Assembly: GCA_001630475.1 (NCBI GenBank) | Contig: KV419413.1 | Span: 327,320-391,319, forward strand | Direction of reading: 5' to 3' | DNA: 64,000 nucleotides | Source: Sistotremastrum niveocremeum HHB9708 | Lineage: Eukaryota > Basidiomycota > Agaricomycetes > Sistotremastrales > Sistotremastraceae | Shown here: piece by piece, positions 28,858 to 52,862 of the stretch | Numbering within the stretch: the stretch's first letter is position 1 | How the letters are laid out: the number at the start of each line of letters is the position of its first letter | Notes under the pieces: model-generated | The model's input: the letters and a program-made list of their open reading frames with translations, nothing else | The model's database searches: none | What the model was told of the DNA's origin: nothing | Translations under genes and position numbers: made by a program

Positions 28858-31800
28858 TTGGCTAGTCTTGCCTCTTATTGTGCTGCTGTCGGATGGAGAT
28901 GGGTGGTGGAAGAGACAAAGTGAATATGAAAGCGATTGGGGACTGAGGCGCCATTTATAAGACTGCCTGATGCGCGCATTGGGCTAGGGCGGTAGCCTTG
29001 AGGACGTCCACAGCCCCCGGTGAATCATGGCATTCGAAGGTGAAACAGGATGTATGAACGGTGGCTTGTTGACGTCCCTTTGTTAAGCAGACCAGCCTAG
29101 ATGGACGTTTCATTTGCATTAGGGCTGGCAACACGTCGACAGGGTTAGGCTACATCTCAGCTGATCAGGGTCGATATTCTCTTCCTGAGCGCCTGAGCCT
29201 GATCATTCTCTGCGGTCTCGACGGTTCTCAGACGACTATACACTGGCGACCATTATCTCCGATGTTACCCATTGCAAACCATTCAGTGGCCGCCGCACGC
29301 CCCATACCTCGTTTCTCGCACAGTTTAACCAGAATTGACAACCTTATTGTAACTGCGTCGGCTAGTACGGTTAGGCATCCGACACCGCCAAGGACTGCGG
29401 TCGGCCTGCTCCCCGTTCTCAGCTTCGAGTCTCTCAGCCTCAGGAGCAGATCCCACCTCGGCGTTCTAAAGATAGCTCATCGATACACGCTTTAGGCTTG
29501 GAAAGATGGACTGATGGAGCCACTCGAGTCGAGTCGACCACTTTCTACCAGTGCTCGGTGACAAACGATATAAAGCAAAAATGAAGCATAAATTGCTCCA
29601 GGTATCATGTTGGAAACGATTCCGATGTCATAATATACAATGATGGGAATATTGGTCGTAAAACCCTCGTGAAATCTCTATGCAACAGAAAGGACGGCAT
29701 CTATGTCTGACGCTCAAAGGCGACGAGAATTCCGAGGCTTTCCCCATGCGCTGTTTTCATCGTCAAGGTTTTCGGCGTAGACGTATGCGGGCTAAATATA
29801 TGTCAGTTGCTGTCCTTCAGAAAGAAAGAGAATCAACTGACCAGGGAATCATCAGAATCGTTGAGCGATGAAAAGCTACTTGAGAAACCAGAGTGTTTCT
29901 ACCAAGTTCGTCAGCTTCTTGTCTATGGAGCATTAATGTCAGACTCACCATGATTTTTCTCAGAGCTGATCTAGGTCTCGACGTCGATCTTCTAGCTGGG
30001 CTAGTCTGAAGGAAGAAATTTAATGAGTTTGGATTCCTTGCAACCTGTCGTCAAACGAACCGAAGATGAAGTGACAGTGCTGTAACGGGAGTTTGTCAAC
30101 GACAACATTGTATGATGTTTGTGTGAAGGTGAGGGAAGATGTGTCAGGCTCGAAGGCTTTGAGCAAGGGGTGTAGAAGCAGTGGGCAGTAGACCTCGAAG
30201 TGAATGCGAACTGAAGAACAGCGTCGTCTCATCCCAGCATTATATACCCTACCGACCTTTGAGAAACGAACACTCCTTGCTTCTGGCCCTGACGGAATCG
30301 TGCCATTCCAAAAATTCTCGACTGCGCTAGGTGCCAAGTATCTCTCTGCCTAGCCACCAACTCATCTTGGCATTCACAATGGCTTTCCAAGCCAGCCTGC
30401 CTTCAATATACTGTGGGAAGTCGCTCCACAAATAGTTCTCATTCCCAAGCTCGGATGATCAAACTCACACTCCGCCGTCAAGGCCATCGTGGGAACTTCC
30501 GGATGCGAGGCGAGTACTCTCAAGTTCTCTCACAGCGCTGCAGTTTATTGCCTTTTCTGGGTCCTAATCCTCTCGAAAGGTCTAGATCTAGGGTGGCGTT
30601 GATGGATTGGGAGACCAGAGTCCGTCGAGAGCTCTGCTCGATCGATGATCGGAGACTCCAGAGCGACGCTGCTAAGGAGTTGACGACGGTCCAAGACTTT
30701 CGGTCGCTCTGTAGACTATTCTTGGTTATCTTTGTCGCTGCGGCGACTGATGCTTGCGACTGAGATGGCGTGAGTCCGAGCGCAGCGGGTGAACATGCTT
30801 GTGGTGTCGAGGCCTCCTTTGAATTGTCAGCCGAATTGTGTTGAACTATATGCATAACACCGACGTTTACAGCTCAACCTCCAAGATTCACGCGCACCTC
30901 GCTCCAATGCGCAGCGGTGGTTTTACTTCTATCTGAGAATTTTGGATGTCGAGAGCACAAGCAGGCCAAGCATTACGCATCGAAGGTTTGGTTGACTTTA
31001 GATCGGTCCTTCTTACTCCCAAGTCCAGGTAAGTTTTCACTGGTCAGTTCTCCCATCCTGATCAACTCAGTATACATTATCGTACCCTCATCGTACCACC
31101 CCAGTTTTCCGCTGATCGCCTCTGCCGGTGGTGCCTGGAAGAACCATCACGACTTGTCTGCACAGACGGCCTCCGACACCCATTTTTCCATAATGTACGA
31201 CGGCGGCCTTGTCAATAAACTGTGCATCCGCATCCGCACGCCGTCGGCCGCCATCGACTCCAATCGCATTCGGACGTCGATGTGGTGCCCAAAGCCGTAG
31301 ACCTCCGGCCAATACGTATGGCATCGGTATAGCCTGCATGGCACATTCTTGCTCCGGGGTCATGTTCCTGATCTCGGACCTCAGTCTCATCTCGCTGCTC
31401 CACTATTCTTGTTTTTCACGCCGAAACTCGAATTGAATTTGAAAAGAGAGGGCCGAAGATCGAAATCCCAACTTACGTTTCTCTGTTCTAGAGGGAGGTC
31501 ACAATGGCAGAAAAGACTCCATGGCGATAAGAGTGCTTCATTGCTGCCAAGCACGGACTCTTGAAGTGGCCTAACCGGACTTAGTGTTCATCCCCTTCTA
31601 TCCAAGATTAGGGAACCTTTTTCTCTCGCGTATGCTGCACTTTCCCAATTCGGATGGTCGATCTTGAAGATGCTATGGATTCCTCTTCTCCGGCTTCGGT
31701 ACTGCTTCGTAAGAGATGCGTCCATGCTTCACCAGAGCCTTACGTCTCCATTGAACTTTATCATGAAACCCAACATGGTGGCCGGGTTCACATGAAGATT

Positions 31801-34049: not shown

Positions 34050-35132
34050 TCAGGACGAATGTCCCAATTTTTGTCGTTCGGCTTGCTCTCTCTGTCGACG
34101 AGCAGTTCGATCTTCCGCGTCTGTGACTATGTCGTTCCATTCGATAAACTTTTCGGAGAGGCTATCAACCTGTACGACGTGTTTGAATTTATCCCAAGAG
34201 CGAAGAACAACAGACGCACCCTAGTGGTATACTTTTCCAACAAAGCTGTCACGCGTCGTTCGATGTCACTAGCGAACTCCATATCCTCCTTGTGATTCGC
34301 AATCAACTTATCCAATCTCTCTTCAAGCTTGGCATATTCTGTTGATAGAAATTAGTCCTGATTTGAACGTCGAGAACATGATGAACGCGCCTCCGAGATC
34401 ACCGGCGCCTGCTACGCCTCTTTGATTGAGAATATCGATTTCTCGTAGGTCCCGATCTGCATCGCGTATTTCAGGCTCTATATCTGCTAATAGAGCTTCG
34501 AATTCCGCCGTGGACATGGCGGAATAAGAAGGCTGAACGACAAGAGGTGTAATGCCTGAGAGCGCGAAGGACGGGTTCAAATATTGGGGATACTGTTCGT
34601 CTGCCCCCCACACTCATCAGCACAGGCTGAAAGGGATTATAAAAGACGCACAATAGTCCATGAACCTATTCAGGGGGTCGTTCCTCAGCAGTAGCTCATT
34701 CATCCTCATCTGAAACTCCTCCGTCTTCCTGACAAGCGTTGCACTCCCTAAAGTACCCTCCTTTTCCTTCCCCTTTTCCAGAGACTCTTTAGATTTCTTC
34801 TTTGAATCGTCCGTCACGCCATAAACGAGTGCTTCGAGATATCGAAGACGTAGTTGAATGGACGCCTCAGGCGGTATCGTAGGAGGAGCTGCATCCGCGT
34901 CTTTTCGTGTAACTTGGGTGAGTGAGACCGGAGTTTGAGCTTCTGATTCGATCTCTAATATCGTCGAATCCATAATCATCGCGCTAGTAGAGCCAGATGC
35001 TGATGCTGATCCAGACAATGGAAATTTGCCAGAGCCAGATGCAGATGCAGGCGGCGAAGTAGGTGGGCTCGTTGATGATCTAAGACGCATATGATGCGCG
35101 TCGCCGAGAAATACGCTTCCTAGTACATTCAT
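34050..35132 (-). CDS. Dynactin p22/p24-like subunit (DCTN3 family)
   Basis: Small subunit of the dynactin shoulder, the cofactor for dynein-driven transport and nuclear positioning. Exons: 35132-34652, 34600-34403, 34338-34220, 34169-34050; 305 residues. The family layout is visible: RLRYLEALVYG early, as in DCTN3 LERWVYG; a helical middle; FMDYYEQYPQYLNPSF; then coiled coil YAKLEERLDKLIANHKEDME and LEKYTTRVDSLSEKFIEWND, like the LSKQFVQWDELL end of DCTN3. The N-terminal about 100 residues are Ser/Pro/Ala-rich and longer than usual. An alternative start at 34979 or 34973 (MIMDSTILEIE) would be nearer family length. The donor at 34402 (GTGATC) is weak but restores frame. The assignment rests on pattern, not a search. 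Confidence 0.65.
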
Positions 35133-35823
35133 TAATATACTCGACGGGGGCTGGCGTTGGGTAGGGTTCCGAGTGCTGCGGTTACGGCGACGAGGCCATG
35201 AACCTGAGAATGCGAGCGAAAATGGTAAGCGCTTTGCGACGAGCGGGAGATGCCGGGATTTCTTGCTCTCGTTCGACGTACTCAGTTTTTGAGTTTTGTA
35301 GGACTGGGACTTATGGAGTATATATGCTGGTCTTTTGTTTCGTCGACGTTCCGTACAATACCGACACCATTGACATAGTGGCAAAACCAAAGTCTCTACA
35401 ACCTGATGCATCGATGTGGATGCACAATTCGGCAAACGGAGCCCAGGTCGCAAGGCGAATTATTGAATTCCATGTTATCAATATTATTGAAGAGTCATTG
35501 GTTACTCCTACTGATCACTCACCAAGGTCGTACTAATGGAAACATGTCAATGATGCGCAGCTCGCATTTTTGGATTTAAGGATTCCTTCCATAAATAGGA
35601 CGGCTGAGATGGTTCATTGCGATGTCTCAAGTAAGTCCTATGTGATCCTTACCGAGTTGAATACACACTTTGTATGTCTTGAATATATTGTGCTCGTTCC
35701 TCGAAAACGGAAAAATATTTCCCACGTGTGCACATCCGGTCACCGCAATTTCTTCCGACTGACCCGTCATCACTTGGTTTCACCACGTCCCCAGCCCTTT
35801 AGTTGGCTCACTCTCCGAGAGTC
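35133..35823. other. Divergent promoter region
   Basis: About 0.7 kb between the dynactin-like gene (minus) and SEC11 (plus). No gene recognised. CATAAATAG near 35590 is the only TATA-like word on the SEC11 side. Confidence 0.4.
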
Positions 35824-36647
35824 ATGTTAGACCAATTTCGCCGACTTGGGTTTAGACATGTGCGTCTCTCATTTTCCCGGAAGCTCTCACTCTGAAGAAG
35901 GCTTGATTCAGGTCTTGCTACAAGTTTTGAATTTTGCCTCGGTTTTGGCGTCGGGACTCGCAATGTGGAAAGGACTGGGATTACTAACTAATACTGAAAG
36001 CCCTATTGTTGTCGTTCTTAGGTGCGTTGACCCCTTGCTGGTTTCAACTCTACGAAAACGGAGTTAATGGGTTATCGATGTTGTAGTGGATCTATGGAAC
36101 CGGCGTTCTATCGAGGGGATCTCTTATTCTTGACCAACCCACCTACATCAGCCTATAAAACTGGGGATATAACTGTCTATAATGCTCCGGGGGGTGCGAT
36201 ACCCATCGTTCATCGTGTACTGGAAACGCATGATCTGGTCATCAAGTGCGTACGCGTCGGCTTCGCACGGTTCGACGATGAGAGCTAATCGGATGACTTG
36301 CTAGGTTGACGGTGGACGATGTTGTGGTTCCACAGCTGTTGTTGACGAAGGGGGATAACAACCAGGAGGATGATATTCAGTTGTATAATGGGTTGGAATA
36401 CCTTGAGCGGAAACACATCGTTGGAAAAGTCAACGGGTGCGTACTTCACTCCCTCTACTCAGCCTATGACTCTAAAGCCCTGATACTCTAGCTTCTTACC
36501 ATACGTTGGCTACGTAACAATAGCAATGGTACGGTCCAACCCCCTCTGTCCAGCGTCGTCTAATATCTCCCCTAGAACGACTTTCCCCAACTCAAGTACG
36601 CTCTCATGGGTATTCTCGGCTTGATGGCCTTAATACAACGAGAATAA
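35824..36647 (+). CDS. SEC11: Signal peptidase complex catalytic subunit SEC11
   Basis: ER membrane serine protease that removes signal peptides during translocation. Six exons: 35824-35859, 35912-36021, 36087-36245, 36305-36436, 36492-36528, 36576-36647; 181 residues, normal for the family. An N-terminal TM anchor ([20 protein letters not shown]) precedes the catalytic box [18 protein letters not shown] with nucleophile Ser51. His91 lies in IPIVHRV, and the acidic residues lie in [10 protein letters not shown] (Asp119 and following). The end [20 protein letters not shown] plus QRE is typical of SEC11. The first exon is only 12 codons and the fifth only 37 bp, so automated models may truncate it. 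Confidence 0.92.
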
Positions 36648-37054
36648 CGCGGCGTTGAACTACACTCCTTTCGAAATTTTCGTCGCGTTCTGTCTAAGTT
36701 ATCTAGTTTTTGTGCCGCTGCTCTCGATTCTCGATTGATCAATGTAAAATTCTTCATCCCACATTTCCCCGCATCTCCCATTGACCTCCGACCAATCTGG
36801 CCGTTATGATGTTAAGCAATAAATCGCTAAATAGTCAAATATCTACTTGAGCTCACCGCATGGGCTGAATAAGCGCCCATGTTGTACCAGCGTCATTCCA
36901 TTACAAGATCCACCCCGGTCAAAACCAACCAACCTCATGATCCGATGAACTAAGCCTCTTCGACTAGGACGTCGCTATCTGTTTCACTGATCTTCCAGTA
37001 CCCTGGACAGGACTGCTGCTTGTCGCTGTAATTTACTCCCTTAATATCTAGGAA
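36648..37054. other. Intergenic, promoter of the E2 gene
   Basis: About 400 bp between same-strand genes. No feature beyond generic promoter sequence. Confidence 0.4.
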
Positions 37055-39066
37055 ATGGTCTTGCGACTCCCACGCACAGGCACGACGACGATATTCTCGA
37101 GCTCGACTTCAAGTTCGGTTAAGATGTCTCAGAAATCGATGCGGATGTTCATACAGGCCCGCTCTTGTGGAAAGAGACACCCTAGCATTCACATCGGAGC
37201 CGCCGCACGAGCGATGCCTAGAGGGGTCAGATGTGAATCGCAGGTGGCATCAACCAGTCTCAGACGAGTCCATACGAGCTCCCCCAGATGGTCACCCCCC
37301 TCCTCCAAAAAGAGCTTACAGACGTTCAAGTCAGCCTCCTTTTCACTTCCCAAGTCTCGAACTAACAACCGAGTCAAGACTCGCAGACATAGGCGAAGGA
37401 ATCACAGAATGCGAAATAATCCGCTGGTCAATCGCTCCAGGTCAAAAGATATCCGCATTTGATCCACTTTGTGAAGTACAATCTGACAAAGCGAGCGTGG
37501 AGATCACGAGCCCTTTCGATGGAGTTTTGAAAGAGGTTATGGTGAAAGAGGGGGAGGTAGCGAAAGTCGGAGCGGGGCTTTGTGTCATTGAAGTTGATGC
37601 TGAAGGAGAAGACGCAGAAGGAGGTGCTAGCGTCGAAGAAGATGTTGTGGATATGGAGGAGATAAAGAAGATCGAAAAGAAGATCGAAAGGTCGTCTATG
37701 CCTACGAGGCCATCTACGCCATCTTCGGCCTCATCTTCATCCCCAGAAGCACGACCTCGACGTCCACATCCCCTCGATCCAAATTATACTCCACCACCAC
37801 CTCCCAAACCTTCGTCTTCGTCCTCCACACCGCCATCCGGGAAATCTGCCAGAGACGTTCTCGCCACACCCTCAGTCCGACATCTAGCACGTCAAAAAGG
37901 CATCGATATTACTCTACTAAGCCCTGGGTCCGGCAAGGGTGGTAGGGTTGAGAAATCGGATATCGAGACGTATCTTGCATCCTCCTCTACGAGCGTAGAA
38001 ACGACGGAAGGAGCGAAGGCTTCACAACCAAGAGAAGAGGGAATGGAAACAGTGGTTGAGTTAGGACGGACGAGATGGGCTATGTGGAGGGCTATGACGA
38101 AGGTACGTATGCTATCAGTCATCTCATACATCTATTCATTGTCTCTTCGTATAGAGTCTCGACATTCCTCACTTTGGGTACGTGTCACATTGAACTTATC
38201 CTGTGCCATCATCCTGACACGCTCATAGATATTCAACCTACCTCGATATCACCTCAATCCACCAGCTTCTGCCGATCTTAAACGTCAACATACCCCCTCA
38301 CTTCCTCCTTTCTTCTCATCCCATCCATTCCTCCCAGAAACCGGTCTCGATATCGCCGTTGTCGATATACGGAGCGAATCCTCCGCCGCCGCCCAGTGTA
38401 GATGAAACAGGAAGATACGCGAAGTTGACATACCTTCCCATCCTTCTGAAGACTCTATCGAAGGCAATGATGGAATGGCCTCTTTTCCGCTCCTCCATCA
38501 CACCCTCACCATCTTCCACCTCAACACCCTCAGCATCGCCGCCAGATGCAAAAGCGAAGCCAACGCTAACAATACGGCCCACAGCCGATATATCACTGGC
38601 CCTGTCCACTCCTACAGGTCTCTACACGCCTACCCTCCTTTCGGCATCCTCCCTTTCAATTTATCAAATAACATCCACCCTCCGCCGATTCCAATCTCTC
38701 GCTCTCTCATCCAAACTTACTCCAGCAGAAATGCCGAAGAAGGGAGGAACGATCAGTGTGAGTAATGTAGGATCTATCGGGAAGGGGGAATTTGCGAGTC
38801 CAGTTCTGGTTGAAGGAGGCGGCGTTGCGATCGTCGCTATTGGGAGGGCGAGATGGGTTAGAGAATGGGATCTGAGCGAAGCGGATGTCTTCGATTTAGG
38901 AGGTGGAGTTGGAGGAATGAAGACGAAGAAGGGCCCGAGATTGATTGTGGGCGTTAGTTGGAGTGCGGATCATAGAGTCGTTGAAGGTGCTGAGATGGCT
39001 GCGTTTGTGGAGTGCTGGAGAGGGTGGGTTGAACATCCTGAGCGATTGATTGGCGATGGTCGATGA
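37055..39066 (+). CDS. DBT: Branched-chain alpha-keto acid dehydrogenase E2 (dihydrolipoyl transacylase)
   Basis: Mitochondrial core of the BCKDH complex; transfers branched acyl groups from lipoate to CoA in Val/Leu/Ile breakdown. Exons: 37055-37329, 37379-38102, 38155-38177, 38229-39066; 619 residues. The presequence contains SLRRVHTSSP, a matrix-processing-type site. The lipoyl domain runs from KLADIGEGITECEIIRW to the lipoyl Lys129 in SDKASVEI. The E3/E1-binding domain is LATPSVRHLARQKGIDITLL. A 23 bp exon joins AMTK to SLDIPHFGYSTYLDIT of the catalytic domain, which ends SWSADHRVVEG. The usual DHRV(V/I)DG has Asp where this has Glu. The true start is uncertain: in-frame ATGs at 37124 and 37214 give shorter presequences. 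Pro/Ser-rich linkers join the domains as usual for E2. Confidence 0.88.
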
Positions 39067-41841
39067 GAGTCATCCACAAAATTGTAATATTCTATTGGTC
39101 CCGTAGGCCGTAGCAGAGTCATGGACTCATCTTCCGCAAAGAGTTTTATTGCTTTCACGCGCTGTGTAGTACTTCGAGTCCACTTCATCTGTACATATAT
39201 ATTCTCAATCAAATGCAGATACTTTCATTGGAACGTATACATATTATTCATAAAGTATCGAATTTCTCCCTAGTTTCTACGAGCCTGAGAACAAGATGAC
39301 GAAGTTACCGTAGAGTGAGCGCTGGATTCGAGTCCATGTCTCAGCTCAATCCCTAAATTGAACTAATCTGCCTAAGCGACCTCAACCGCGCCCGCGACCC
39401 CGCCTTACCATCGCCTAAGCATCCTTACTAGTACCAGCGATGCCGTACCTCATTTTGGAACTATAATTATAGAAATTTCTTTGAAAGGAGTCGCCGGTGA
39501 TCTTCGAACGAGTCTGATCAGCTGAGCGCTTGTCTTCTATGAGATGGGAGAATGCATCCAAGAGGAGCAAAACGGTCATTATACGTTGTCAGAATGATCA
39601 TGCATCATGAATGACCGTTAGTATCCGATGGTGGGGGAGCGTGATCAGCTTCTTCAGCTGGCGGCTTATCTGGCCAGTAGTGCTGTCGATATTCGCGATA
39701 TTGGCCGTCTGATGTCTGATGTCGAGAGAAGCCTGGCGATACCGAGTGTGGCCTTAACCGACGTTCCTTGACCTGACAATGTTTAAGCGAAATATTATCC
39801 GAGCGACAAAGAAACTCCTTGATCGTATCAGATCAAGGGTATTGCAGCCGATGTCACCAGCGATAACGATATCCGTCAAGTGCGATTGAGCGCAATGAAA
39901 ACGATAATTAATGTCGCCAGTAGTCAAGAGATATAGCCGCTATCTCGCCAAAGCCCAGAACTAGAACAAGCACAGCACTACTATGGCTCGAGACTCCGAG
40001 TCCGTTGTGATCGGAAACGTAGAAGAGAAGGAGAGGCACCGGCAGTCGATTTCCACATGGTAAGGACGAGCTTAAGTCACGGCGAGGTGAGGCGGACAAG
40101 GCGGACAATGTAGCCTCGAGCCTCAGGAGAGCGTCTTTGCATTCTTTGATTCGAGACAGTCCTAGACAAGCCGAATGAACCGATACCAAGAAAATTTTAT
40201 ATCCGCCAGAAGAGCCGCACAACGCCATGTGTACTGTATACTCCGGTCAAAACGTCCGATCCTGCATCGGTGTAGATGGTCGTGGCATCAATATGCATCA
40301 ATATTGACTATAGGTTACCGGAGGCAGGGCGCCAATGCGGCCGAAATCGGCAATTTGGGAATTTAGGTGCGATTTCGGCCGATTTAACGACCTGGTGAAA
40401 GATTGGTGGCGAAGAGACATATGGTAGTATGGAGGTCGACGGTGGGGTTGGAAATGGTTAGCTTGGACTCTCGTTGGGGGATCTGCGCATGGGCGTGCGC
40501 GCTAGGAAGTCGCTGGCTATTTCCCCGGGTGTACATGACAGTCCGACGTCAGATCGGTCGAGTTGCAATGAGTAAGCTGAACGCAATCCGTGATAGCGAT
40601 GGAGTTGGGGGCCACCCTTGACGACAGAGGTCCAAGAGGCGTCTTGCGAAAAATTTCGCAAGTTCTCTTTTTGATCTGCAGTTCTTCAACACAGCTGAGA
40701 CACCGCGCAGAGACGCCGTTTCGAGTCCGATGTCATTGGGCCGGCGATCCCATATCGATTGTTTTATCTTGAATGAGTACAATTTTGGGTGTGAGACGCT
40801 CATCGATGAGCCGATCAGAGTCTTCGGAGTCGAATCTATTACTAGCAGAGTCGCTGTGACATTGTCAGTCAGCCACGAGATCATTGATAACCGGCGTGCG
40901 ATGTAGCAGGCGATGCTCACCCTCGATTGCTTGATTATCGATACATCGATTACATTACCGACAACGACGAGTCGGCATAATATTCAGAGTCGCTGGCCAT
41001 GGGAATATCCAAGGGCCGAATTGCCGCCACTTTCTTCTCTTGAATAGGATGTCCCCAAAGCGAACGTTCGAGCTGTCTGAGGGTGTTTCCGACTTTCCGA
41101 GGGTGCCAGCCAAAGTCTCTCTCTTCGTTGTCCAGACGGGGTCGCTAGTTACCGGTTTCTGCGCCCGGGCGCGGACAACTTCCGTTAAAGTACATGACCT
41201 TAAGCAAAGGCATGAGCTGACCACAGGAAGCATAGAGAAGCCATTGCTGGCGCAACTATTGTGAGCCGTGTGGATACTACGTGGCCGCCGTGCTTATCAT
41301 TCGAGCTCCATCCTACTAGCGCTTTGATCAGCTGGATGACTTGTCGAATCGTCTCGACACCACAAGTCGCTAAGTACTGACCTCACTTTGAGACATAGAA
41401 CCCTTGGACTTAACAACCCTTGATCCACATGAGCGCATGGGACCGGCGATGTAAGCTTCCTGCGACCCCTTCTCGAAGTTGCCGCGACTGGATCCAAGGG
41501 CTCGGTCTCGGATCACCAGACTTGTACGGTCCATCCTAAACCATCTGGTCACCGCATCCGAGCACCGAATCTTTGTTCTGTCTCCTTGTAATTCAATCCA
41601 ACTAGATGGGCTGGGCTCCCTGACTTAGCGATGTCGTACCTGATCAGGGGTTCTCCTGACTAGTCGGAGGCCGCTCGACGCTTTGCTATAAAGGCTCCAC
41701 TATACATCCAGTCTTTTCGATCTCCAGCTCCTCCTCGGTCTCTGTCCTATCCTCTATATCGGCGGCCGTCGTATACAAAGCTATCGCTTATAACAACCCT
41801 CTCGCTCTACCAACCCAATTACACCACCCACCCCGTCCACA
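39067..41841. other. Gene-poor stretch with a GC-rich inverted repeat
   Basis: 2.8 kb without a supportable gene. An 11 bp perfect inverted repeat, GGCCGAAATCG (40339-40349) and CGATTTCGGCC (40370-40380), forms a potential hairpin with a 20-base loop. The right end carries the promoter of the 41842 gene. Confidence 0.45.
41687..41692 (+). promoter_or_regulatory. TATA box of the 41842 gene
   Basis: TATAAA about 150 bp before the ATG, followed by a long C/T-rich leader from about 41710 to 41830. This is the form of a strong fungal promoter. Confidence 0.5.
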
Positions 41842-42186
41842 ATGCCTTCATTGTCCACCACTTCGTCAAGGTCTTCAGCCTCTTCTGTATGTCTCACTCT
41901 TACCATGTCTCGATTACGGAAGCTAATCACCACTCATAGTCCTCATCGTCCATGGCACCCTCCAAACACTCGTCCATGACGTCTCTCTTCTCCCTCTCCC
42001 CTCTTATCAAGAAGAAATCTCAGGCCACACCGTCGGCTACCACCGTGAGTCATTTTTCTAGATAACCGATGTTGAACAACCGACTGAGTAACTTTATTGT
42101 TTTAGTCACCGTGGCCCCGACTCGCTGATGATGAGATCCTCGACGATGATAACCTTGCTTGGGTCAAGATCCCCAAGAGACGTTGA
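41842..42186 (+). CDS. DDNLAW-tail small protein 1 (76 residues)
   Basis: Unrecognised Ser-rich small protein. Three exons with clean GT/AG sites and phase-0 junctions: 41842-41886, 41940-42044, 42106-42186. It begins MPSLSTTSSRSSASSSSSSM, has a basic patch (LIKKKSQ), then SPWPRLADDE and the C-terminal signature ILDDDNLAWVKIPKRR. No signal peptide or TM segment; likely soluble and mostly disordered. The D-D-N-L-A-W tail recurs in the genes at 46909 and 48577, also in the last exon, defining a local three-member family. A TATA box and C/T-rich leader suggest high expression. A long C/T-rich 3' UTR follows. Function unknown. Confidence 0.65.
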
Positions 42187-45100
42187 GCCATTCATAGCTC
42201 ACCGACTCTTCCTCATTCATCCCGCTCCCGTCCCGTCGATCTCTCATTTCATGCCTTAATCCCGTCTCATTCCGCTCCTCGCCCTCCTTCACCTCTCATT
42301 CCTGTTCCTCTCCCGTCGGCTCCATCTATCCACCCTCTCATTTGCCTAACACCACCCTGATCCTCTCACATTCATATCGCCCGGCATCTCAACCACGCTC
42401 ATGATCACCTCTACCTTCTATTCTTCCCCGCCCTATATCACCTCGGACACATCAATATGACGAGTACTTGCACTACTATCCTCGTCCTTCTCAATACAGT
42501 CATCATGGTGTACGGTCCGGGAGGAGGTAGAGGGGGGTATCCATCTTAGGATATCATTGCGTTACTTAAGGATTGGTCTGCGGGATGGATTGGGAATCGA
42601 AAACCTCTACTGATCTCGCCTTTTCTTTTGTCGTTGCATTGCATTCTGATTTCCATTATCGGGACATTGCATCTCATCCCTTTTATTCTTCACCGTCATC
42701 TTCATCTTTCCGTTAGGGTCTTAGAGTATGTACATGTACACGCATTTATGTTTCGGTAAATAATACTGCTGTTGGCGAACCTACGCTGCACATATAATTC
42801 GGCTAAGTATCCGGAGCGTAACCACTGAAGGCATGAGACCGTGATGGATGAGATACGAACTCAAGAATACAAAGACTTCGACTACGTATTCCAGACCTCA
42901 CGACGGTCTAATGACTCCAAATACAGACCTTCCTTCGTCCATCCTTTTCGTAAGAAGATACCCAACCACATGATCAGTGAGACTACTCACAACATCCCTC
43001 ACTCCCTCGGCCATACCTTCACCCCACCCCGGTCGCCCCTAACACCTCACGAATCAGACCAAAAAGCTCGCATCCGACTTCGAAGCTAGCAGAGCGCTCC
43101 GTCGTCTATGGTCCTGGCTTGAGCAAGAGGTGAGCTGATGATTTCTCGAACGAGCCGTCTGAAGCCGAATCTGGAACGTCGAGTCTCGCGCTGATTTCGG
43201 GGTGCTTGCTTGATATTCCAGGCGCGTGCCAACGTCGATGACAGGAAAGAAGACACAAAAGAAGAACTACTGGACGGACATCTTGTAGCAACGTGCGTCA
43301 AAATTTGGACTCGTTGACTTTCCGAGACAACAGAATGCCAGGATGATGTTCGTAAGCTCGAGCTCCCTGGGCGTCGATCATGAGCGCTTCCCGCTAATCA
43401 ACAAAGTGATAATTGATGATTGATCCACTCTTCTTCCTCAATGCAGGGCTCTCAGACTGCCAAAAAAAGGTGGGAGAACGGCTTGCTCATGGGCCACCAG
43501 CTCAGGAACAGGAACATCACCAGTGGCGTTGACAGGGCTTTCGATCTACGATCAGAGAGCTGATCAGAGCTAGGCAAGAAGGTTGGAGAGGAAGCGTCGT
43601 TGACAGATTTGACAGCTGGTGCAGGCACCAAGAAGGCTCGGAAATTGCGTCAGCTTACTCCGAGCTCTGAAACCGGAGAAAAACTTTTCAGACTCCGCTG
43701 AGCCGGATGACGGATGCTTCCATAGCCGGGGGGCCGAAACGGCCGAACCAATGTCTTCGTTTCGTCCGTCCTCGTTGTCTTCTCGAAAAACAACACTCAA
43801 AGTTTTCTAGATGTCTCGGTACATGCGAATGGAGATATCGTGCGATACATTATTATCAAAAGATTGCCCGGGGTTCAATGATCACGACACGGCGGAATCA
43901 ATTCGCGTATGCAGGTTATCATTTGATCCATTTAGCAGCATCCAGGAACGAATTTGAGATTAGCGGCGCGCGATTTGCTTTACGCGACACAAACACGCCA
44001 GGGTCGACAAAGGCACATCCAGCTTCATATTTGAATCCGAAGCTACACCCTGGCCCCAGCAGAGTGGGTTATAGAGATCAGCAAAGTGTAATAGACTTTC
44101 CTAGGCGAAAGTTGAGTATTGAAAATAAGAAATGGCTCAGGCACGTCCGGGGGTGCCGTCACTACGGCGGTTGAATGATCCTTCCTGACGCTGACTGAGG
44201 TTTGCAACCCTTAATGAAGATAGGATGAAGAGTTCAAGACAACATATTGTCGAATTCCTGAGCATGAGAACAGCATGGTTCACAGCATGAGAACAGACAG
44301 GGAAACGTTTGACGCGGTGAAAATGAGGCCACTGCGCAGGTAAGGGAACGTTTGAGAGGACGGGCGGACGAACTCGCTCCGGACAGGTTTGCAACTTTGC
44401 AAACAAGAGCAATTGGTGTGAACATTGGCGAGTTGATAAGTGATTGTGCAGGGGCTTTTCGAGATTCTTCTCAGACCTGAGGTGCCGAACAGACAACGAC
44501 AGATGGAGAATAGCATAGAAAGTCCAAGGGGATTCAACGGGTTCAATGTATACAAAGCTTGATCGTGAAATCGACAAAAGGCGACCACTTTTCGGCAGCC
44601 GAGATTCCTGGGAACCAAGATCCATTTGGTAGATGGCTGTGAGGGTCGACATTGAGTGCAGCACAGGCAATTGAGCGAGGATCAAGGTACGAGATCTAAA
44701 CCTGAGCTCCATCTACCTGAAGGACACTAGCGTGGGAGGCGATGAATCAATGATAATAGAAGTGATGCCGAGCGAATGGAAGAAGGGACTCAGGTGATCG
44801 TGATGTATGACGCAGAGAGGGGGAAAGCGATGTATTTCGTGGGAGAGAGCGACCCACTCACGATGATTTGGTTCCTTTTTATAAGTTTTCTTCGATAATG
44901 ATGGTTATGTTTACTTCCTGGGGTTCACTCAATCATTACTAGCGTTGTTCATGAAGTGGTTAGACTGCGGCCACATTCGCGGTTCCGTCAAGGATCCCCG
45001 AGGGAACGTTGCAATTTTCCCAGGATGTGCTGACAAACCAAGTTGAGAATCTTCATAAGCACGAAAATATTCGAGGGCCCTCCAGAGCCGCTTAGCATAA

Positions 45101-46908
45101 GACGAGGTGAAGGCGTCAGTCGGGCAGGCGTCGTACGGATCGAGGACTGATGCGGCCACAAGTATCTGGCGCGTGGCGCGCTATTTTGGACGGTCCTAAT
45201 ACGAAAAGCGTGGCATGAACTCTCTGTTTGGGGATCGCTTTCCCAGCTCTGAACAAAATTGCAAAACGATCAGTTCAAGCTGCTCTGGGTTCTTCCGGAG
45301 AGCAGAGAATGAGACAATTCGAAGTTGCACGGGTCAAATGAGAAGACAGTGTCGGCGAGTCGGTTCGTGCGGAGTTTGTAGCGAAGACTCGACTCGGATA
45401 CAACACCACGAAAGTCGTGAGAATACGTCGAGGTGGCAAATAAATCACGTGAGAGTATCGATGCAGTGTGATCCGATGCCCTGGGGGTTGTCTTCCAGTG
45501 AAAGGCCCCATTGCGAACGAGCTACGATCTCGCAGGAGACAGTGCAAGATGCACCAGGGTCTAAAGGGCGGTACGTATGGATGTCTCACTTGATTTTCGT
45601 GATGATTACAGCATGAAACGTACCAGAACAGTCGAGCAGGTGGATGTGCGCCATCACAATATAAGGTGGGTGACCTCATAATGCACTTTAGTATCAGTCT
45701 TCCCAGTTTCGAGATGACCGCGGCGGGCGAGACGCTGATGCTGCGAGAGCATGGAGCAGAAGTTTTATTTCTTTGCGGGAAATGAAGTCGGCCGGTACGG
45801 TGTGCGTAATAATGTCATTGAACTTGAAGAGCACGTGAATGGAGAATTTGGATCTGACCTAAATGCTGTGCCAGGTTGTGGGCGCTTGCGGGGAAATACG
45901 GGACGAACTGGCTCTGCATTGACCTTAGCGCAGGTTTCGTAGGTTGTAGGACGACGTACGGCGACTGATGGACTGGCCAACTGCTGAAGTCTAACCCGAG
46001 TCTGTCGAAGACCGAGGGCTCGGTTGCGCAGACGTCGGCGAATCCTGGATCAGTGCAGGGGCGTAACCACCTCTTCTCCAAAAGTGACAGGCAATTTGTG
46101 GGGAAGAAAGGTATAGATGGGCTGATAAAACGTCAGCGTGACGGTATGAGCAATTGGCGGCCTAAACACGAGGTACCTAGCAAGATGCCAGCGTGAGTGC
46201 AAGTTCGAAGGAAAAGGATACTGAAACAGCGGGGTCGGATATCGGATAAAACACTTCTCTTGAAGTGCCTTTCACCGGTGCTTGCCTCGCGCTTTCCCAT
46301 CTCCAGAGATTTGCGGGTTTATCTATGAAGAAGAAGTCTGTTCCACTGCCTTCAGTCTTAGGATCAGCGCGGTGCCCTGAAGCCTGATGAAAGGCGAACT
46401 CCCAGCGCCTTCATTTCGGTCGGCATTCTGGTGGCCTTCAGGATGGATATTCCACCCAGCGGCAAGGGAAATTAAAGTGGAACGACAGACAGGAGCCAAT
46501 GCCTTCGTGCGCAGTCGCAAACTTTCACGTATAAAAATACTTCTTACTTGGCTTGCTGGGCGGGACGCCATTTTACCAGAATGGTTACATATGAAGCAAC
46601 GGCGTCTCCTAATTCTGGCCCTTGGACATAGTCCCCTGGAACGGCGCCGTGTTGTAACGAACGGATTCTGGACTTCTTCCTGAGGCCCTAGATGTGATCA
46701 AGGACGTGATCCCCCCGGAGTCGGAACATCGAGGATGACCTACGGCTTCCTCCACCCTTGAAGGCTATATATACGTCTTTAGGAACGTCCACACCCTTCA
46801 ACAGGCTTTCCACCCCGCTTTTTCTTCTGCGCAAGACCTGCTCTCGAGCTTTCACTAGCCCGACATCAACGATAATCGCCACCTCCTTATCGACAAACTT
46901 TCGGAATA
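42187..46908. other. Gene-poor stretch of 4.7 kb
   Basis: The first about 500 bp look like the 3' UTR of the upstream gene. The rest has only motif-free short frames, the longest 191 codons on minus at 44712-44137. No transposon protein, tRNA or satellite was seen. The right end holds the TATA box of the next gene. Confidence 0.45.
46766..46773 (+). promoter_or_regulatory. TATA box of the 46909 gene
   Basis: TATATATA, 136 bp upstream of the ATG, followed by a C/T-rich leader. The spacing is close to that of the 41842 paralogue. Confidence 0.5.
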
Positions 46909-47557
46909 ATGACCTCTCCTGCGACATCTCCTATGGTCTCCCCGACTGAGTCCCCTTCTATGTCACCTATCCAACGCTCTCCATCTCGCGCAGAGTCTTC
47001 TAATTCGGAGGTAAGGTTCCGAGCCTTCTTCAAGATGCGATGCGGTTTATTCATCGTGCGACTCAGGCCGGCTCCATCGTGAGTCTTCGGCGGTCGTTGA
47101 GCCGCGCATTACCTCTCAACGTTGGTGCATTCCTTGGCATATCATTGTCTGGTCCCTTGATTAATCGAGCGATTATAGAAGCTTCAAACGGCATTGCGAC
47201 CTCGGAGACACACATTCGATCCATCTCAGACTGAGCCTTACGAACAAGTACGCCTTTCTACCTTCTCCACAATCAACTTTCCTCGCTTACCTTGAGCGCG
47301 CGCTAGCAAATTGCCACTCTCACACAAGCACCTCCAACACCTCACAAGAAGGCTCCTACTCGTCGATCTACCTTGGGCGGAGATCGTAATCCTCCTTCCT
47401 ACAAGACCGTCCCGGTGAGCCATTATGAACATCCAAGATTTATCCGTTATCTTATCTGGGGAAACAGCCCGTCACGAACATGCGACCTTTGTTGGAAGAG
47501 CATGAATTCATCGATGAGGATAACATGGCTTGGGGAAAACCTACCAGCCCTTGGTAG
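46909..47557 (+). CDS. DDNLAW-tail small protein 2 (about 105 residues)
   Basis: Second member of the local family. Model: exons 46909-47010, 47230-47247, 47307-47414, 47468-47557. It starts MTSPATSPMVSPTESPSMSP with a Ser-Pro-rich run, then a basic middle (APPTPHKKAPTRRSTLGGDR) and ends EFIDEDNMAWGKPTSPW. The tail aligns with LDDDNLAWVKIP of the 41842 protein. The first intron (219 bp) is unusually long and may hide a further small exon; the last two exons are well supported by splice sites and frame. The Ser-Pro repeats could be kinase targets (inference). Function unknown. It faces the third member at 48050-48577 tail to tail. Confidence 0.55.
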
Positions 47558-48049
47558 ACGCTCATGGTTTTGACGCTGCCGGAGCGGGATGTGGAGTGCT
47601 GTGTACGATAGAGAAGCATTCTGAGTTGACGCTTATCATGAGTTTACGATCTTATGAGTTTTATGTATACCCTTGGCAAGACATTATATCTCCATAGGTA
47701 TTACTGCCTAGATGCCGATTTTGTTCAGTCGTTCGGGAATCAATAGGTTCTTCTGAGTCGGTCACTGGTCCAAGCATATCGATTTAATACGCAACACACC
47801 ATAAGAATGTCAAGGTATATGGTCAAATTTCTAAAGCGCTACGACGAAGACAATGACATAATGATATTACATGATCATCGCTAACAGATAGTGGAGAATA
47901 GATAGTGGATATCGTAGAAGATAAGAATGATAGGCAAGTTCGTGGTCCGGGTATCGAAAGATCTGGGTACGTAGTATCTCATCACGAGGAAGAGAAATAA
48001 GCGAATGCTCAAGCAACTCTCCACCGAAGTGGAGAGACCAAGTTCGTCA
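47558..48049. other. Intergenic between convergent paralogues
   Basis: 492 bp of probable 3' UTRs between the converging DDNLAW genes. No other feature. Confidence 0.45.
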
Positions 48050-48577
48050 TCATGACGAATGGGATGCCCGTCTTGATTTTCTGGGTATTCTCACCCAGGC
48101 CAGGTTATCATCATCAAGACAATCATCCGAATCATCACCGTCATGCGCAGCGGACACGGTTCGTCCTCTCAAAGGTAAATGTGGTGCAGAGGAAGACGTG
48201 ACTGCGGCCGAAGCTCGCAGAGCCTGGGCAAGATCGCTCGCGGAGAGGGGTGCTGCGAAAGGAAGATTGGCGGAATAAGGAGGGGGAGGGGTGCGACAAT
48301 CGTACTCTCCTGAGAAATCGTGCAAGGAGTCGAAGGTCGTCTGATGAAATAGGAGTGTGAGAAAGAGGTCGATCGAGTGAACGACTCATTTGCGCGCTTA
48401 CCTCAGTAACTGACGGTTGGGCCTCTCGATGATGTCTACGGCTGCCGCTGGAGCCGAGGATTCCGTGAGAACGCTGGGACCAGGGGTAAGTCTGGAAGTT
48501 CAACACTCGATGTTTGGGAGACTCACTTGTAAGATGGAGGAGACGATGGAAGAACGGGATGGGGATGGGGCACGCAT
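48050..48577 (-). CDS. DDNLAW-tail small protein 3 (143 residues)
   Basis: Third member of the local family. Exons 48577-48527, 48491-48402 and 48340-48050, all phase 0. It starts MRAPSPSRSSIVSSILQTYP, passes through SRRHHREAQPSVTETTFDSL and the proline stretch RTPPPPYSANLPF, and ends SDDCLDDDNLAWVRIPRKSR plus a short basic Ser tail. LDDDNLAWV(K/R)IP is identical to the 41842 protein except for one K/R change. No signal peptide or TM segment. A TATAAG element on the minus strand near 48710 and a C/A-rich leader precede it. Likely soluble and largely disordered. Function unknown. Confidence 0.65.
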
Positions 48578-49709
48578 TGTGATGGAGTTGTTAGGAAGGA
48601 TGTCGCTGATGCTTTGCGGTGTCTGTGGACGATGAAGCTCTTTTAACTTCGAGGATTGGCGAACACAGTTGATGGGGACATGATAATGCCATCAAAGAGC
48701 AGTTCTTATAGTAACGAAAGACCTCGGCTGCCGCTATGGTGCGGGGTGAAATCGCCAGACGAAGGAGTCACGGGTCATGGACAGACATCAGTTCGGTCAT
48801 AGTTCCGCTAAGTTGAGGCATTAGTTCGTGGATCTTATCCGTATGAGTCCAAGCGGCCTCGAACGTACCTCGACTAGCCGCCCTTCATTATGAAAGAAGA
48901 TTTATCATCTTAACCGCCTCTAGATATGGTCGATGTTCTGGATAAGGTAACCGATTCTTTGGTTTGGTGTGGGAGTCGTAGTACTGCTTTTGTCGATGAT
49001 GCAAGCGAGGGCGGCCGACCAGGGCTGAAGCTTGGAAAAAGAATCATGCCTACTGGTGCGTTCGGTCACCAATATTCGAGAGCCCCTTGGTTGGACCGAT
49101 ACCCCAATCGCAAGATCAATGGCGTCTGGACTGTAACTGTTCCAACGGCGGCCGTAGACGCTTGATGTATCAACGGGACCAGTGTCGACAAAACATCGCG
49201 TAGTTATTGTCTTGTACTAGTTTGCAGTTTGTATCTCGAACTGTTGGGGGACAGTGGAACAATCAGCGTGGACATCAGAATGCAACGCCGAGAGAACGGG
49301 AGACGCACCGGCTGCGTCTGATGACTACCAGGCACTTGTCCAACGACGGATATGGTTCCGGTCTTCGTGCGGACTGCTACGGCCCCTCCGGTTGAGCGGA
49401 CGGAGCCACGGATCACTGTCGCAGATGGGTCGCTCGTTTTCGAGGTCGAAGATATGGAGACGGGATCAAAGCCGACACTGCCTGGAGTGTGACATTCCGG
49501 CCATGTCAAAGAGTAATCTAATCGCTGGAGATAGCTTGATGCGCAAAGGGGGGTATCAAGCCATGTAAACGTCGTACAATCGAATTGGTAGTCAGCACCA
49601 ATGTGGCCGGAGTCGAGAGAATGGAGCATCCGACTGGCGGGCTCGCAATTTCGGCCTCTTCGAGGCTTGGAAATCGATCATATTTACTGAAAGTCTTGAC
49701 ACCTCATCG
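48578..49709. other. Intergenic, nothing recognised
   Basis: 1.1 kb upstream of the tRNA. It holds open frames on both strands, such as 141 codons on minus ending at 49204, without motifs or splice support. Confidence 0.4.
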
Positions 49710-49815
49710 GCCCGAATGGCTCAGTTGGCTAGAGCGCAGGTCTCATATGGCAGCGTATGAGGGAGCGTCCGCTCCTGATATCCTGAGGTCGCAAGTTCGA
49801 GCCTTGCTTCGGGCA
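49710..49815 (+). tRNA. trnM-CAU: tRNA-Met (CAT), elongator, with intron
   Basis: Acceptor stem GCCCGAA (49710-49716) pairs with TTCGGGC (49808-49814), with discriminator A at 49815. The D-arm box is TGGCTCAGTTGGCTAGAGC. The T-arm GCAAG-TTCGAGC-CTTGC is perfect. The anticodon stem CAGG pairs with CCTG around loop CTCATA-A, so the anticodon is CAT. A 32-base intron (49748-49779) follows position 37 and contains GTATGAG, which can pair with the anticodon loop, the usual shape of a nuclear pre-tRNA. TTCGA in the T-loop marks it as elongator rather than initiator. Spliced length is 74 bases. Confidence 0.93.
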
Positions 49816-50652: not shown

Positions 50653-51585
50653 TCAGGCATCCGACGCATCACCTTGTACGAATGGGAGATTCTCGGCGGC
50701 ACTCTTGAATATTTGAGCACCTCGAGGAGGCATGCGGCTCTCAGTAGGAATATGTGAATCGGACGGAGCCCGTCTCGCACGTTTGGCTCTTGAGTGACGT
50801 TGACTGGAAACGGCCCTCCATGCGGGTTGGGCTCCCCATGATTGAGCTGCCGGAGCACCCCAGGCATCCCACGCACTGGCATCAGGTTCTGGTGGAGGAG
50901 GAACTGAAGGGGGATAGGGGACGTTCGTTACTCCGATCGACTGGTTCAACGCATCGAGTTGACGGGTCATGAACTCAAATTTTCGATCGAGGCTTGCCAT
51001 CCTTGCTTCCACCACATCTATAACAGAGTTCAAAAGGTCTCGCTCGCTATCTGAACATTGATACGACTTACCGAGGCGGGTACTTCTCGTACTCTCAAGG
51101 TGTTGAATTTCTTTCAACGACTGCTCTGCGGTTAGCTGTGCGCTCTGTGATGCGGCCTGCAATTCACGCAGCGCTATGAGTGTCTCCTGTTCACCGACTT
51201 GGAAAGCATTCGAGGATGGGGATGGGGCTGAGCTCTTGAAAGAAGCCTGCAATTTTCCCGTACTGTTCTGATCGAATAAAATGGGGATTACTGGGCGCAA
51301 ACAGCTGTGAAACCAACAATAGTCTTCAAAAAGTAATGACGTACCGTGCACTAAGAACGCGCCTACAAGAATTCCCAAAAGCAAGACATTGCTTTGCGGT
51401 ACGTCTATATCCTTCCATGTGATTGTTACTAGAGGATTTGTGAGCTCTTTGAGGACGACTGTTGGTATCTAGATATATAGAAGGTGCGAAGACTCACAAT
51501 TTGGGATTATAATGGAACATAGATATCCGAATGCAATAGAGAACACTATGAGGATGCTCCGTTCAGCATCGACTGAAAATGGCAT
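50653..51585 (-). CDS. Two-TM coiled-coil protein with MPPRG tail, copy 1 (261 residues)
   Basis: No known family recognised. Exons 51585-51498, 51458-51345, 51290-51072, 51017-50653. Two N-terminal hydrophobic helices (ILIVFSIAFGYLCSIIIP and NVLLLGILVGAFLV) are separated by the polar stretch TWKDIDVPQS. A predicted coiled coil follows (ETLIALRELQAASQSAQLTA and VEARMASLDRKFEFMTRQLD), then a Pro-rich segment, a basic patch (RHSRAKRARR) and the tail SRMPPRGAQIFKSAAENLPF ending GDASDA. The gene at 52051-52862 has the same plan and 24 of 28 tail residues identical. The third intron (51071-51018, 54 bp) is a multiple of three and open in frame, so retention would add 18 residues. Membrane anchor with long cytosolic domain is inference. 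Confidence 0.65.
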
Positions 51586-52050: not shown

Positions 52051-52862
52051 TCAAGCATCTGATGCATCTCCGTTAAGAAACGGTAGATTTTCAGCTGTGC
52101 TTTTGAAGATCTGTTCCCCTCGTGGTGGCATCCGACTTTGAATAGGAACAGGGGACCGAAGTCCAAAAAGGCCGCCCGGTCGTTCTGACGGTGGTATCTG
52201 TTCCTGGGCACTCCGGGGCCAACCATCAGGAGGTGAATCTGCAGGAGGAGAAGGTGGAGGATGGCCGTAGGGTCTTTGATTGAGGAACTGCTCGAATTGA
52301 TCGAAATTATCGGAAAGTACGCGATACTTTCGGTTTAGTTCTTCTTCGGCGTTTTCAATTCGTTTCAGTATTTCTTGTTCGGTTGCCTGTAACTTGAACA
52401 TCACATTATCTCCTCGTTCTCCTTGACTTGGTTGGCCCCGCTCTATGCTGAAGGCAGCATCAACGGTTCCGTGCGGTATTTCCGATGGAATGTTCTGATT
52501 TCGTCTGATGGCTTTCCTTGATGAACGTGTGCAATTGTAGCTTGTCCCTCCCGTAGCTCCAGCAAACGACTGGGAAAAAAGTGTAGGAACGGCTAAAGTT
52601 TCGTTAGTTGTGATTAAATTTTGAACGGCAGATTATTGAAGGCGTACCATAGACCGCAAATGCACCCACAGTTACTCCAAATAGAATGGCGGTACTTTGC
52701 GGTATATCAAGTTCGATCCATGTAATAGACACTATCGGAGGAGAGCCAGATGATCGACAGCATTATACTGGGATGACAAGTCTTACACCCGGGGAGAAGA
52801 GCAGCCAGGATAAACCCTATGACCATGGATGATCCGACAAGAGAAGCATGTTCAACATCCAT
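52051..52862 (-). CDS. Two-TM coiled-coil protein with MPPRG tail, copy 2 (233 residues)
   Basis: Tandem paralogue of the 50653-51585 gene. Exons 52862-52787, 52731-52648, 52592-52051. It starts MDVEHASLVGSSMVIGFILA, the first hydrophobic helix. Then comes the shared block ITWIELDIPQS and second helix TAILFGVTVGAFAVY, a coiled coil (QEILKRIENAEEELNRKYRV), a Pro-rich region and the tail SRMPPRGEQIFKSTAENLPF, ending GDASDA. Both copies have the same two N-terminal introns, but copy 2 lacks the third. Middle regions are poorly conserved, so selection seems to act on the membrane block and the tail. Function unknown; not near any recognised pathway gene. Confidence 0.65.

What the first reader, a model, noticed from the sequence alone, without database searches (positions are those of the whole stretch)
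41842..48577. A local family of three small Ser/Pro-rich proteins with a D-D-N-L/M-A-W C-terminal signature
Three intron-containing small genes (41842-42186 +, 46909-47557 +, 48050-48577 -) encode otherwise unalike, mostly disordered proteins of 76, about 105 and 143 residues. Their last exons end in ILDDDNLAWVKIPKRR, FIDEDNMAWGKPTSPW and CLDDDNLAWVRIPRKSR. Each has a TATA-type promoter and leader. An acidic-plus-Trp tail kept while the rest drifts looks like a short linear motif docking a partner. I know of no named family with this tail. They lie within 6.7 kb in otherwise gene-poor DNA.
Basis: partly seen in the sequence, partly recalled or inferred. Interest (0 to 1): 0.75.

Follow-up and report, generated by a model that had tools for sequence, protein, structure and literature searches.

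The report
Four small fungal proteins sharing tail
A fungus carries a local family of four (not three) small, probably floppy proteins whose bodies have almost nothing in common but whose last dozen residues are kept, which suggests that the tail is a plug for a common partner that is still unknown.

Summary
Three spliced genes end in D-[DE]-D-N-[LM]-A-W; in the 34.7 Mb genome that coding pattern occurs 3 times, all in this 6 kb. A tail scan found a fourth gene on the minus strand at 30108-29714, 79 aa, ending NLDDENSAWGKPRNSRRL. All four have a TATA box 133-155 bases before the ATG; all 11 modelled introns are phase 0. Gene 1 equals an annotated Sistotremastrum niveocremeum protein. Tails beat 2000 of 2000 shuffles in all six pairs; bodies do so at best marginally. 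Pfam has no match for any of the four. Three capped protein searches, made before gene 4 was known, returned only those two Sistotremastrum proteins. Most likely these are lineage-restricted disordered adaptors or inhibitors sharing a C-terminal docking motif in two subtypes (AWV[KR]IP, AWGKP). The partner is unknown. An Atg8-type core fits 2 of 4 tails; [PL]PxY ubiquitin-ligase-type sites occur in 3 of 4 proteins.

The parts
41842..42186 (+). Gene 1, 76 aa; exons 41842-41886, 41940-42044, 42106-42186; both introns phase 0; Ser 28%
   Evidence: protein identical to annotated S. niveocremeum SISNIDRAFT_487152 (P0001)
42136..42183 (+). Gene 1 tail ILDDDNLAWVKIPKRR, subtype AWV[KR]IP
41687..41692 (+). 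TATA box (TATAAA) of gene 1, 155 bases before the ATG
46909..47557 (+). Gene 2, 140 aa; exons 46909-47010, 47067-47120, 47179-47247, 47307-47414, 47468-47557; all four introns phase 0; holds PPSY (residues 104-107)
   Evidence: 139 of 140 residues as in S. suecicum SISSUDRAFT_518418 (P0002)
47507..47554 (+). Gene 2 tail FIDEDNMAWGKPTSPW, subtype AWGKP
46766..46773 (+). TATA box (TATATATA) of gene 2, 143 bases before the ATG
48050..48577 (-). Gene 3, 143 aa; exons 48577-48527, 48491-48402, 48340-48050; both introns phase 0; holds PPPY (residues 66-69). No annotated protein found
   Evidence: not among the hits, which would miss a very different gene model
48053..48121 (-). Gene 3 tail CLDDDNLAWVRIPRKSRRASHSS, subtype AWV[KR]IP
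48705..48710 (-). TATA-like box (TATAAG) of gene 3, 133 bases before the ATG
   Evidence: not matched by the stricter pattern
29714..30108 (-).
   Evidence: model made by me, no annotated protein behind it
29717..29770 (-). Gene 4 tail NLDDENSAWGKPRNSRRL, subtype AWGKP
   Evidence: tail score 36.7; best of 30 shuffled windows 33.7, next 28.0
30240..30246 (-). TATA box (TATATAA) of gene 4, 138 bases before the ATG

Best explanation
The locus holds a lineage-restricted family of at least four old paralogous genes for small, probably disordered and intracellular proteins, each with its own TATA promoter. The last exon encodes a C-terminal docking motif, D-[DE]-[DE]-N-x-A-W-[VG]-[KR]-(I)-P, followed by basic residues in three of four. 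The tail most likely binds one shared partner or two related ones, given the subtypes AWV[KR]IP (genes 1 and 3) and AWGKP (genes 2 and 4). The variable Ser/Pro-rich bodies bring different regulatory elements to that partner: [PL]PxY sites in genes 2, 3 and 4, and RRx[ST] (recalled PKA-type consensus) sites in genes 2, 3 and 4. They would act as small adaptors or competitive inhibitors. Shown: genes, tail, promoter layout, similarity of the tails beyond shuffles, silent codon change between genes 1 and 3. Inferred: common descent of the whole genes, docking, shared partner, regulated expression, adaptor or inhibitor role.
For: The exact tail pattern occurs 3 times in 34.7 Mb, all here; the relaxed pattern gives the four tails plus one match without family resemblance. 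Tails beat all 2000 shuffles in each of six pairs, while bodies were reached by 85, 1815, 1831, 245, 44 and 1648 of 2000 shuffles (pairs 1-2, 1-3, 2-3, 1-4, 2-4, 3-4). In 11 tail codons genes 1 and 3 have 4 identical, 5 silently different, 2 replaced. TATA[AT][AG] lies 133-155 bases upstream in 4 of 4 genes, against 70 of 2379 ATGs of both window strands. All 11 introns are phase 0. Gene 1 is annotated in S. niveocremeum and gene 2's product is 139 of 140 identical in S. suecicum. The structure model shows no fold. [PL]PxY occurs in 3 of 4 proteins, with shuffle rates of 6.6%, 4.3% and 2.0%.
Against: No partner, expression or interaction data. pLDDT was low in a three-row alignment, which would also be low for a folded orphan. 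Gene 1 has neither [PL]PxY nor RRx[ST], so body modules are not a family rule; LPxY was added after PPxY alone gave 2 of 4. Gene 2 against the others shows more replaced than silent tail codons (2 silent, 5 replaced with gene 1; 1 silent, 6 replaced with gene 3), so constraint is clear only for genes 1 and 3 and for the core positions. Exon choices for genes 3 and 4 are mine, and keeping the frame favours phase 0. The TATA background is all ATGs, not real genes, and its range was set after I had seen genes 1 and 2. The two species may simply be close, so 139 of 140 identity says little about selection.
Confidence: 0.6

Rival explanations
1. A special case of the best explanation: the proteins are adaptors or substrates of a Nedd4/Rsp5-type ubiquitin ligase, with [PL]PxY sites engaging WW domains and the tail holding the target.
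For: PPSY in gene 2, PPPY in gene 3, LPAY in gene 4; per-protein shuffle rates 6.6%, 4.3% and 2.0%. PPXY proteins bind WW domains of Rsp5 (start of the abstract of PMC2171029, listing); LPxY as a variant is recalled.
Against: None in gene 1, which has no Tyr (sequence). With PPxY alone only 2 of 4 proteins qualify, and LPxY was included afterwards. No ligase or interaction was examined.
Confidence: 0.18
2. The tail is an Atg8-interacting motif (AIM/LIR), and the proteins are small autophagy receptors or regulators.
For: Genes 1 and 3 have W-V-[KR]-I after an acidic run, which fits the core W/F/Y-x-x-L/V/I with acidic residues nearby (passages of PMC8666691; sites).
Against: Tails of genes 2 and 4 have W-G-K-P, with Pro where the hydrophobic residue is required, although D-x-x-N-x-A-W is kept in all four. 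The kept Asn and Ala are not part of that core.
Confidence: 0.1
3. The tail is a minimal acidic-hydrophobic transactivation-like or coactivator-docking peptide.
For: Acidic residues, then Leu/Met and Trp in three tails, then Val/Ile in two. The comparison with acidic activation domains is recalled, not tested.
Against: No DNA-binding domain or other Pfam family in any of the four. Gene 4 has Ser at the Leu/Met place. Such domains tolerate sequence change (recalled), whereas D, N, A and W are fixed here.
Confidence: 0.08
4. The tail is only leftover identity from recent local duplication, without function.
For: All copies lie within 19 kb on one contig, and small DNA matches remain between genes 1 and 2 and 1 and 3 (33 and 37 bases at 78-79%).
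Against: The compared stretches of genes 1-3 with their flanks otherwise share only one 20-base match (genes 1 and 3), and genes 2 and 3 share none at E up to 1. Tail codons of genes 1 and 3 differ at 5 silent sites.
Confidence: 0.08
5. Artefact of gene modelling or chance resemblance of C-termini.
For: Genes 3 and 4 have no database protein behind them (gene 3; gene 4 not searched).
Against: Genes 1 and 2 are matched by independent annotation; four tails in one 19 kb stretch of a 34.7 Mb genome.
Confidence: 0.02

Closest known systems
PPxY-bearing Rsp5/Nedd4 adaptors such as Sna3 and the ART arrestins
   Same: [PL]PxY in genes 2, 3 and 4
   Different: No arrestin or other Pfam family; none in gene 1. 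That Sna3 is a small membrane protein is recalled
Atg8-interacting motif (AIM/LIR) proteins
   Same: Acidic stretch then Trp; W-x-x-I in the tails of genes 1 and 3
   Different: W-x-x-P in the tails of genes 2 and 4; fixed Asn and Ala that the AIM core does not ask for
Small disordered regulators with one conserved short motif, such as endosulfine/Igo or the Sml1/Spd1 ribonucleotide reductase inhibitors (recalled)
   Same: Size, likely disorder, one conserved short motif, possible kinase sites
   Different: No Pfam match at E up to 1 for any of the four; the tail sequence differs (recalled)
Annotated orphans SISNIDRAFT_487152 and SISSUDRAFT_518418
   Same: They are gene 1 and the S. suecicum counterpart of gene 2
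   Different: Listed in the database only as hypothetical proteins; neither locus tag is in any held paper

Membership tests
Local DxxNxAW-tail family (proposed here) | C-terminal D-[DE]-[DE]-N-x-A-W | tested here: met
   4 of 4 genes; 1 further match in the genome without family resemblance
Local DxxNxAW-tail family (proposed here) | TATA box 130-165 bases before the ATG and phase-0 introns only | tested here: met
   4 of 4 genes (gene 3 with the variant TATAAG); 11 of 11 introns
Local DxxNxAW-tail family (proposed here) | Second motif T-x-P-W | tested here: inconclusive
   Present in genes 1-3, reached by 0 of 1000 shuffles; gene 4, found later, has TSPA and no second Trp
Atg8-interacting motif (AIM/LIR) | W/F/Y-x-x-L/I/V in the tail | tested here: not met
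   Met by tails of genes 1 and 3 (WVKI, WVRI), not by genes 2 and 4 (WGKP) (definition). Cores outside the tail exist in all four (WPRL; YKTV; FDSL; YSTV and FSSL)
Atg8-interacting motif (AIM/LIR) | Binding to Atg8 | not testable with these tools
   needs a binding assay
PY-motif adaptors of Nedd4/Rsp5 ligases | PPxY or LPxY in every member | tested here: not met
   PPxY in 2 of 4, PPxY or LPxY in 3 of 4 proteins
PY-motif adaptors of Nedd4/Rsp5 ligases | Binding to WW domains | not testable with these tools
   needs a binding assay
Endosulfine/Igo | Match to the curated Pfam profile | tested here: not met
   no Pfam family at E up to 1 for any of the four proteins (genes 1 and 3; corrected gene 2 and gene 4)

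The most novel reading that the evidence does not exclude
The tail is an undescribed class of C-terminal short linear motif (acidic-N-x-A-W-basic, two subtypes) with a dedicated partner. The genus has built a local set of at least four disordered proteins around it by keeping the plug and letting the bodies diverge beyond recognition, several bodies carrying a ubiquitin-ligase-type [PL]PxY site. A second neighbouring pair of open frames with the same 'kept tail, lost body' pattern hints that this is a recurring way of making new genes at this locus.
Probability: 0.3. Interest if true: 0.65.

Novelty: new member of a known kind. Interest (0 to 1): 0.45.

Why it matters
If right, four proteins that share little more than a dozen residues give a clean natural experiment: whatever the tail binds can be sought with one short peptide, and the bodies show what can be varied freely. 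It also shows how gene families can be invisible to full-length homology searches when only a terminal motif is kept.

Tried and rejected
Protein searches: gene 1 alone (E up to 0.01), the first three-protein alignment (E up to 10) and a joined query of three tails plus a piece of gene 3 (E up to 10) gave only P0001 and P0002. Searches used a faulty gene 2 (one Gln dropped, 18-residue exon missing, 121 aa instead of 140); searches use the corrected one. The script cut gene 3 two bases short (142 instead of 143 aa).

Near matches to the tail elsewhere: of the 27 near-hit loci fetched, 16 were read and none resembled the family; all 76 matched strings were translated. The match at C1:629708 is in a short open stretch of its own frame; I take it for chance from its surroundings, not from proof.

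Whole-gene searches of the own genome with P0002 (gene 2) and gene 3 found gene 1's tail (from gene 3) and otherwise no further relatives at E below 0.08; weak rows on C4, C23, C53 and C28 (E 0.08 to 2) were not followed up. The structure model was too poor for a fold search. The solved-structure search with gene 1 gave one Ser-rich match (E 0.56), not meaningful. Paper searches: the tail DDDNLAW as text, 0 papers; the two locus tags, 0 papers; listings (8 of 13 shown; 5 of 23 shown) had no title on this family. Body similarity of genes 1-2 (85 of 2000 shuffles) and 2-4 (44 of 2000) is only marginal. The C20 contig length, meant to confirm the species, could not be read.
Full report
What is there. 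The window belongs to a 34.7 Mb genome in 111 contigs. Gene 1's spliced protein is identical over all 76 residues to an annotated hypothetical protein of Sistotremastrum niveocremeum HHB9708 (P0001), so the window is most likely from that species or a very close one. The contig-length check meant to confirm this did not complete. Gene 2's spliced protein differs at one residue of 140 from an annotated S. suecicum protein (P0002). Gene 3 (143 aa) reads cleanly from the window but was not among the hits of the searches that used its words; a very different annotated model of it would have been missed.

More than chance. The degenerate coding pattern for D-[DE]-D-N-[FLIMV]-A-W has three matches in the genome, all three in these genes, and none when read backwards. 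With uniform base use about 0.03 would be expected (my arithmetic from 31 bits and twice 34.7 Mb). Allowing two mismatches gives 76 matches against 24 for the backward pattern. Translated, 5 of 76 read [DE][DE][DE]NxAW: the four tails of this window, and DDDNHAW at C1:629708. The latter lies in a short open stretch 26 codons before a stop, with surroundings unlike the family, and I take it for chance.

A fourth gene. Scoring all six frames of the window with the three tails ranked the three known tails first and then NLDDENSAWGKP at 29770 on the minus strand, score 36.7. The best scores of 30 shuffled windows were 33.7, 28.0 and lower. The DNA around it reads as a small gene of the same build: TATA box, ATG at 30108, four short exons with GT-AG introns, and the tail in the last exon just before the stop. 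After adding its tail to the profile, the next best place in the window scored 30.2 against a shuffle median of 29.3, so I find no fifth member in the window. More diverged members elsewhere in the genome are not excluded, because the searches for them did not complete.

Shared build. All four genes have TATA[AT][AG] between 133 and 155 bases before the ATG; of 2379 ATGs on both strands of the window (those in the first 200 bases left out) 70 (2.9%) have one at 130-165. The range was set after seeing genes 1 and 2, gene 3's box is the variant TATAAG that a stricter pattern missed, and the background is all ATGs, not real genes; all three overstate the contrast. All 11 modelled introns are phase 0; for genes 3 and 4 the exons are my own choice. 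Tails are alike beyond 2000 of 2000 shuffles in all six pairs. Bodies are not: 85, 1815, 1831, 245, 44 and 1648 of 2000 shuffles score as high for pairs 1-2, 1-3, 2-3, 1-4, 2-4 and 3-4. Within 11 tail codons, genes 1 and 3 have 4 identical, 5 silently different and 2 replaced; genes 1 and 2 have 4, 2 and 5; genes 2 and 3 have 4, 1 and 6. The core D-x-x-N-x-A-W is kept at the protein level, while its surroundings fall into two subtypes: AWV[KR]IP (genes 1, 3) and AWGKP (genes 2, 4).

Other elements. PPSY is in gene 2, PPPY in gene 3 and LPAY in gene 4; gene 1 has no such site and no Tyr. Shuffles of the single proteins give [PL]PxY in 6.6%, 4.3% and 2.0%. LPxY was added to the test only after PPxY alone had given two of four. 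RRx[ST] sites are in genes 2, 3 and 4, none in gene 1. T-x-P-W occurs in genes 1, 2 and 3, at different places, and none of 1000 shuffles gave an equally rare shared pattern. Gene 4, found afterwards, has TSPA and only one Trp, so I do not make T-x-P-W a family feature. AlphaFold2 on gene 2's orthologue with two relatives gave mean pLDDT 57, pTM 0.13, no residue at 70 or more, and a four-residue helix in the tail. This agrees with disorder but, with three rows, does not prove it.

How it probably works. The simplest reading is a shared plug on variable bodies: the tail docks each protein on one partner or on two related ones, and each body adds its own regulatory sites. TATA promoters suggest regulated expression (inference from general knowledge). 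I cannot name the partner. The AIM/LIR reading was tested against the core W/F/Y-x-x-L/V/I (passages of PMC8666691) and fits 2 of 4 tails, so it cannot explain what all four keep. The ubiquitin-ligase reading fits 3 of 4 proteins and concerns the bodies, not the tail; it is a possible special case of the best explanation.

Known or new. Pfam has no match at E up to 1 for any of the four (genes 1 and 3; corrected gene 2 and gene 4). The three permitted protein searches gave only the two Sistotremastrum proteins. These searches need several exact five-residue words, see annotated proteins of limited length only, and did not include gene 4, so 'restricted to Sistotremastrum' means 'not seen elsewhere by these searches'. 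The tail DDDNLAW as text and the two locus tags are in none of the held papers. It is a new family of a known kind: lineage-restricted small disordered proteins sharing a short motif.

Verdict. The docking reading is plausible but unproven. Interest is moderate, 0.45, because the tail is real, rare and easy to test, while function and reach remain unknown.

Noticed in passing
window 50653-51468 (-) and 52051-52632 (-): Two neighbouring open frames share a C-terminal stretch (26 of 34 residues identical, S-x-[IV]-P-x-x-SRMPPRGxQIFKSxAENLPFxxGDASDA) while the rest hardly aligns: a second local pair with the same kept-tail pattern.
   Followed up: partly
window 49710-49815 (+): tRNA gene found by Rfam (53.8 bits) but not by ARAGORN with bacterial settings, perhaps because of an intron; by eye the anticodon reads CAT (Met).
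   Followed up: no
window 37032-39066 (+): Two adjoining open frames with lipoyl, E3-binding and 2-oxoacid dehydrogenase acyltransferase domains, probably one gene for a pyruvate-dehydrogenase-complex-type component (E2 or protein X).
   Followed up: no
window 12755-15898 (+): Open frame of 1047 aa with BRCT matches near its N-terminus.
   Followed up: no
window 41842-48577, genes 1-3 (residues 50-53, 137-140, 18-21): Shared T-x-P-W outside the main tail core, at a different place in each protein, 0 of 1000 shuffles; absent from gene 4.
   Followed up: partly
window 29714-48577, all four genes: All 11 modelled introns are phase 0, so an internal exon could be skipped without a frame shift; alternative splicing was not tested.
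   Followed up: no
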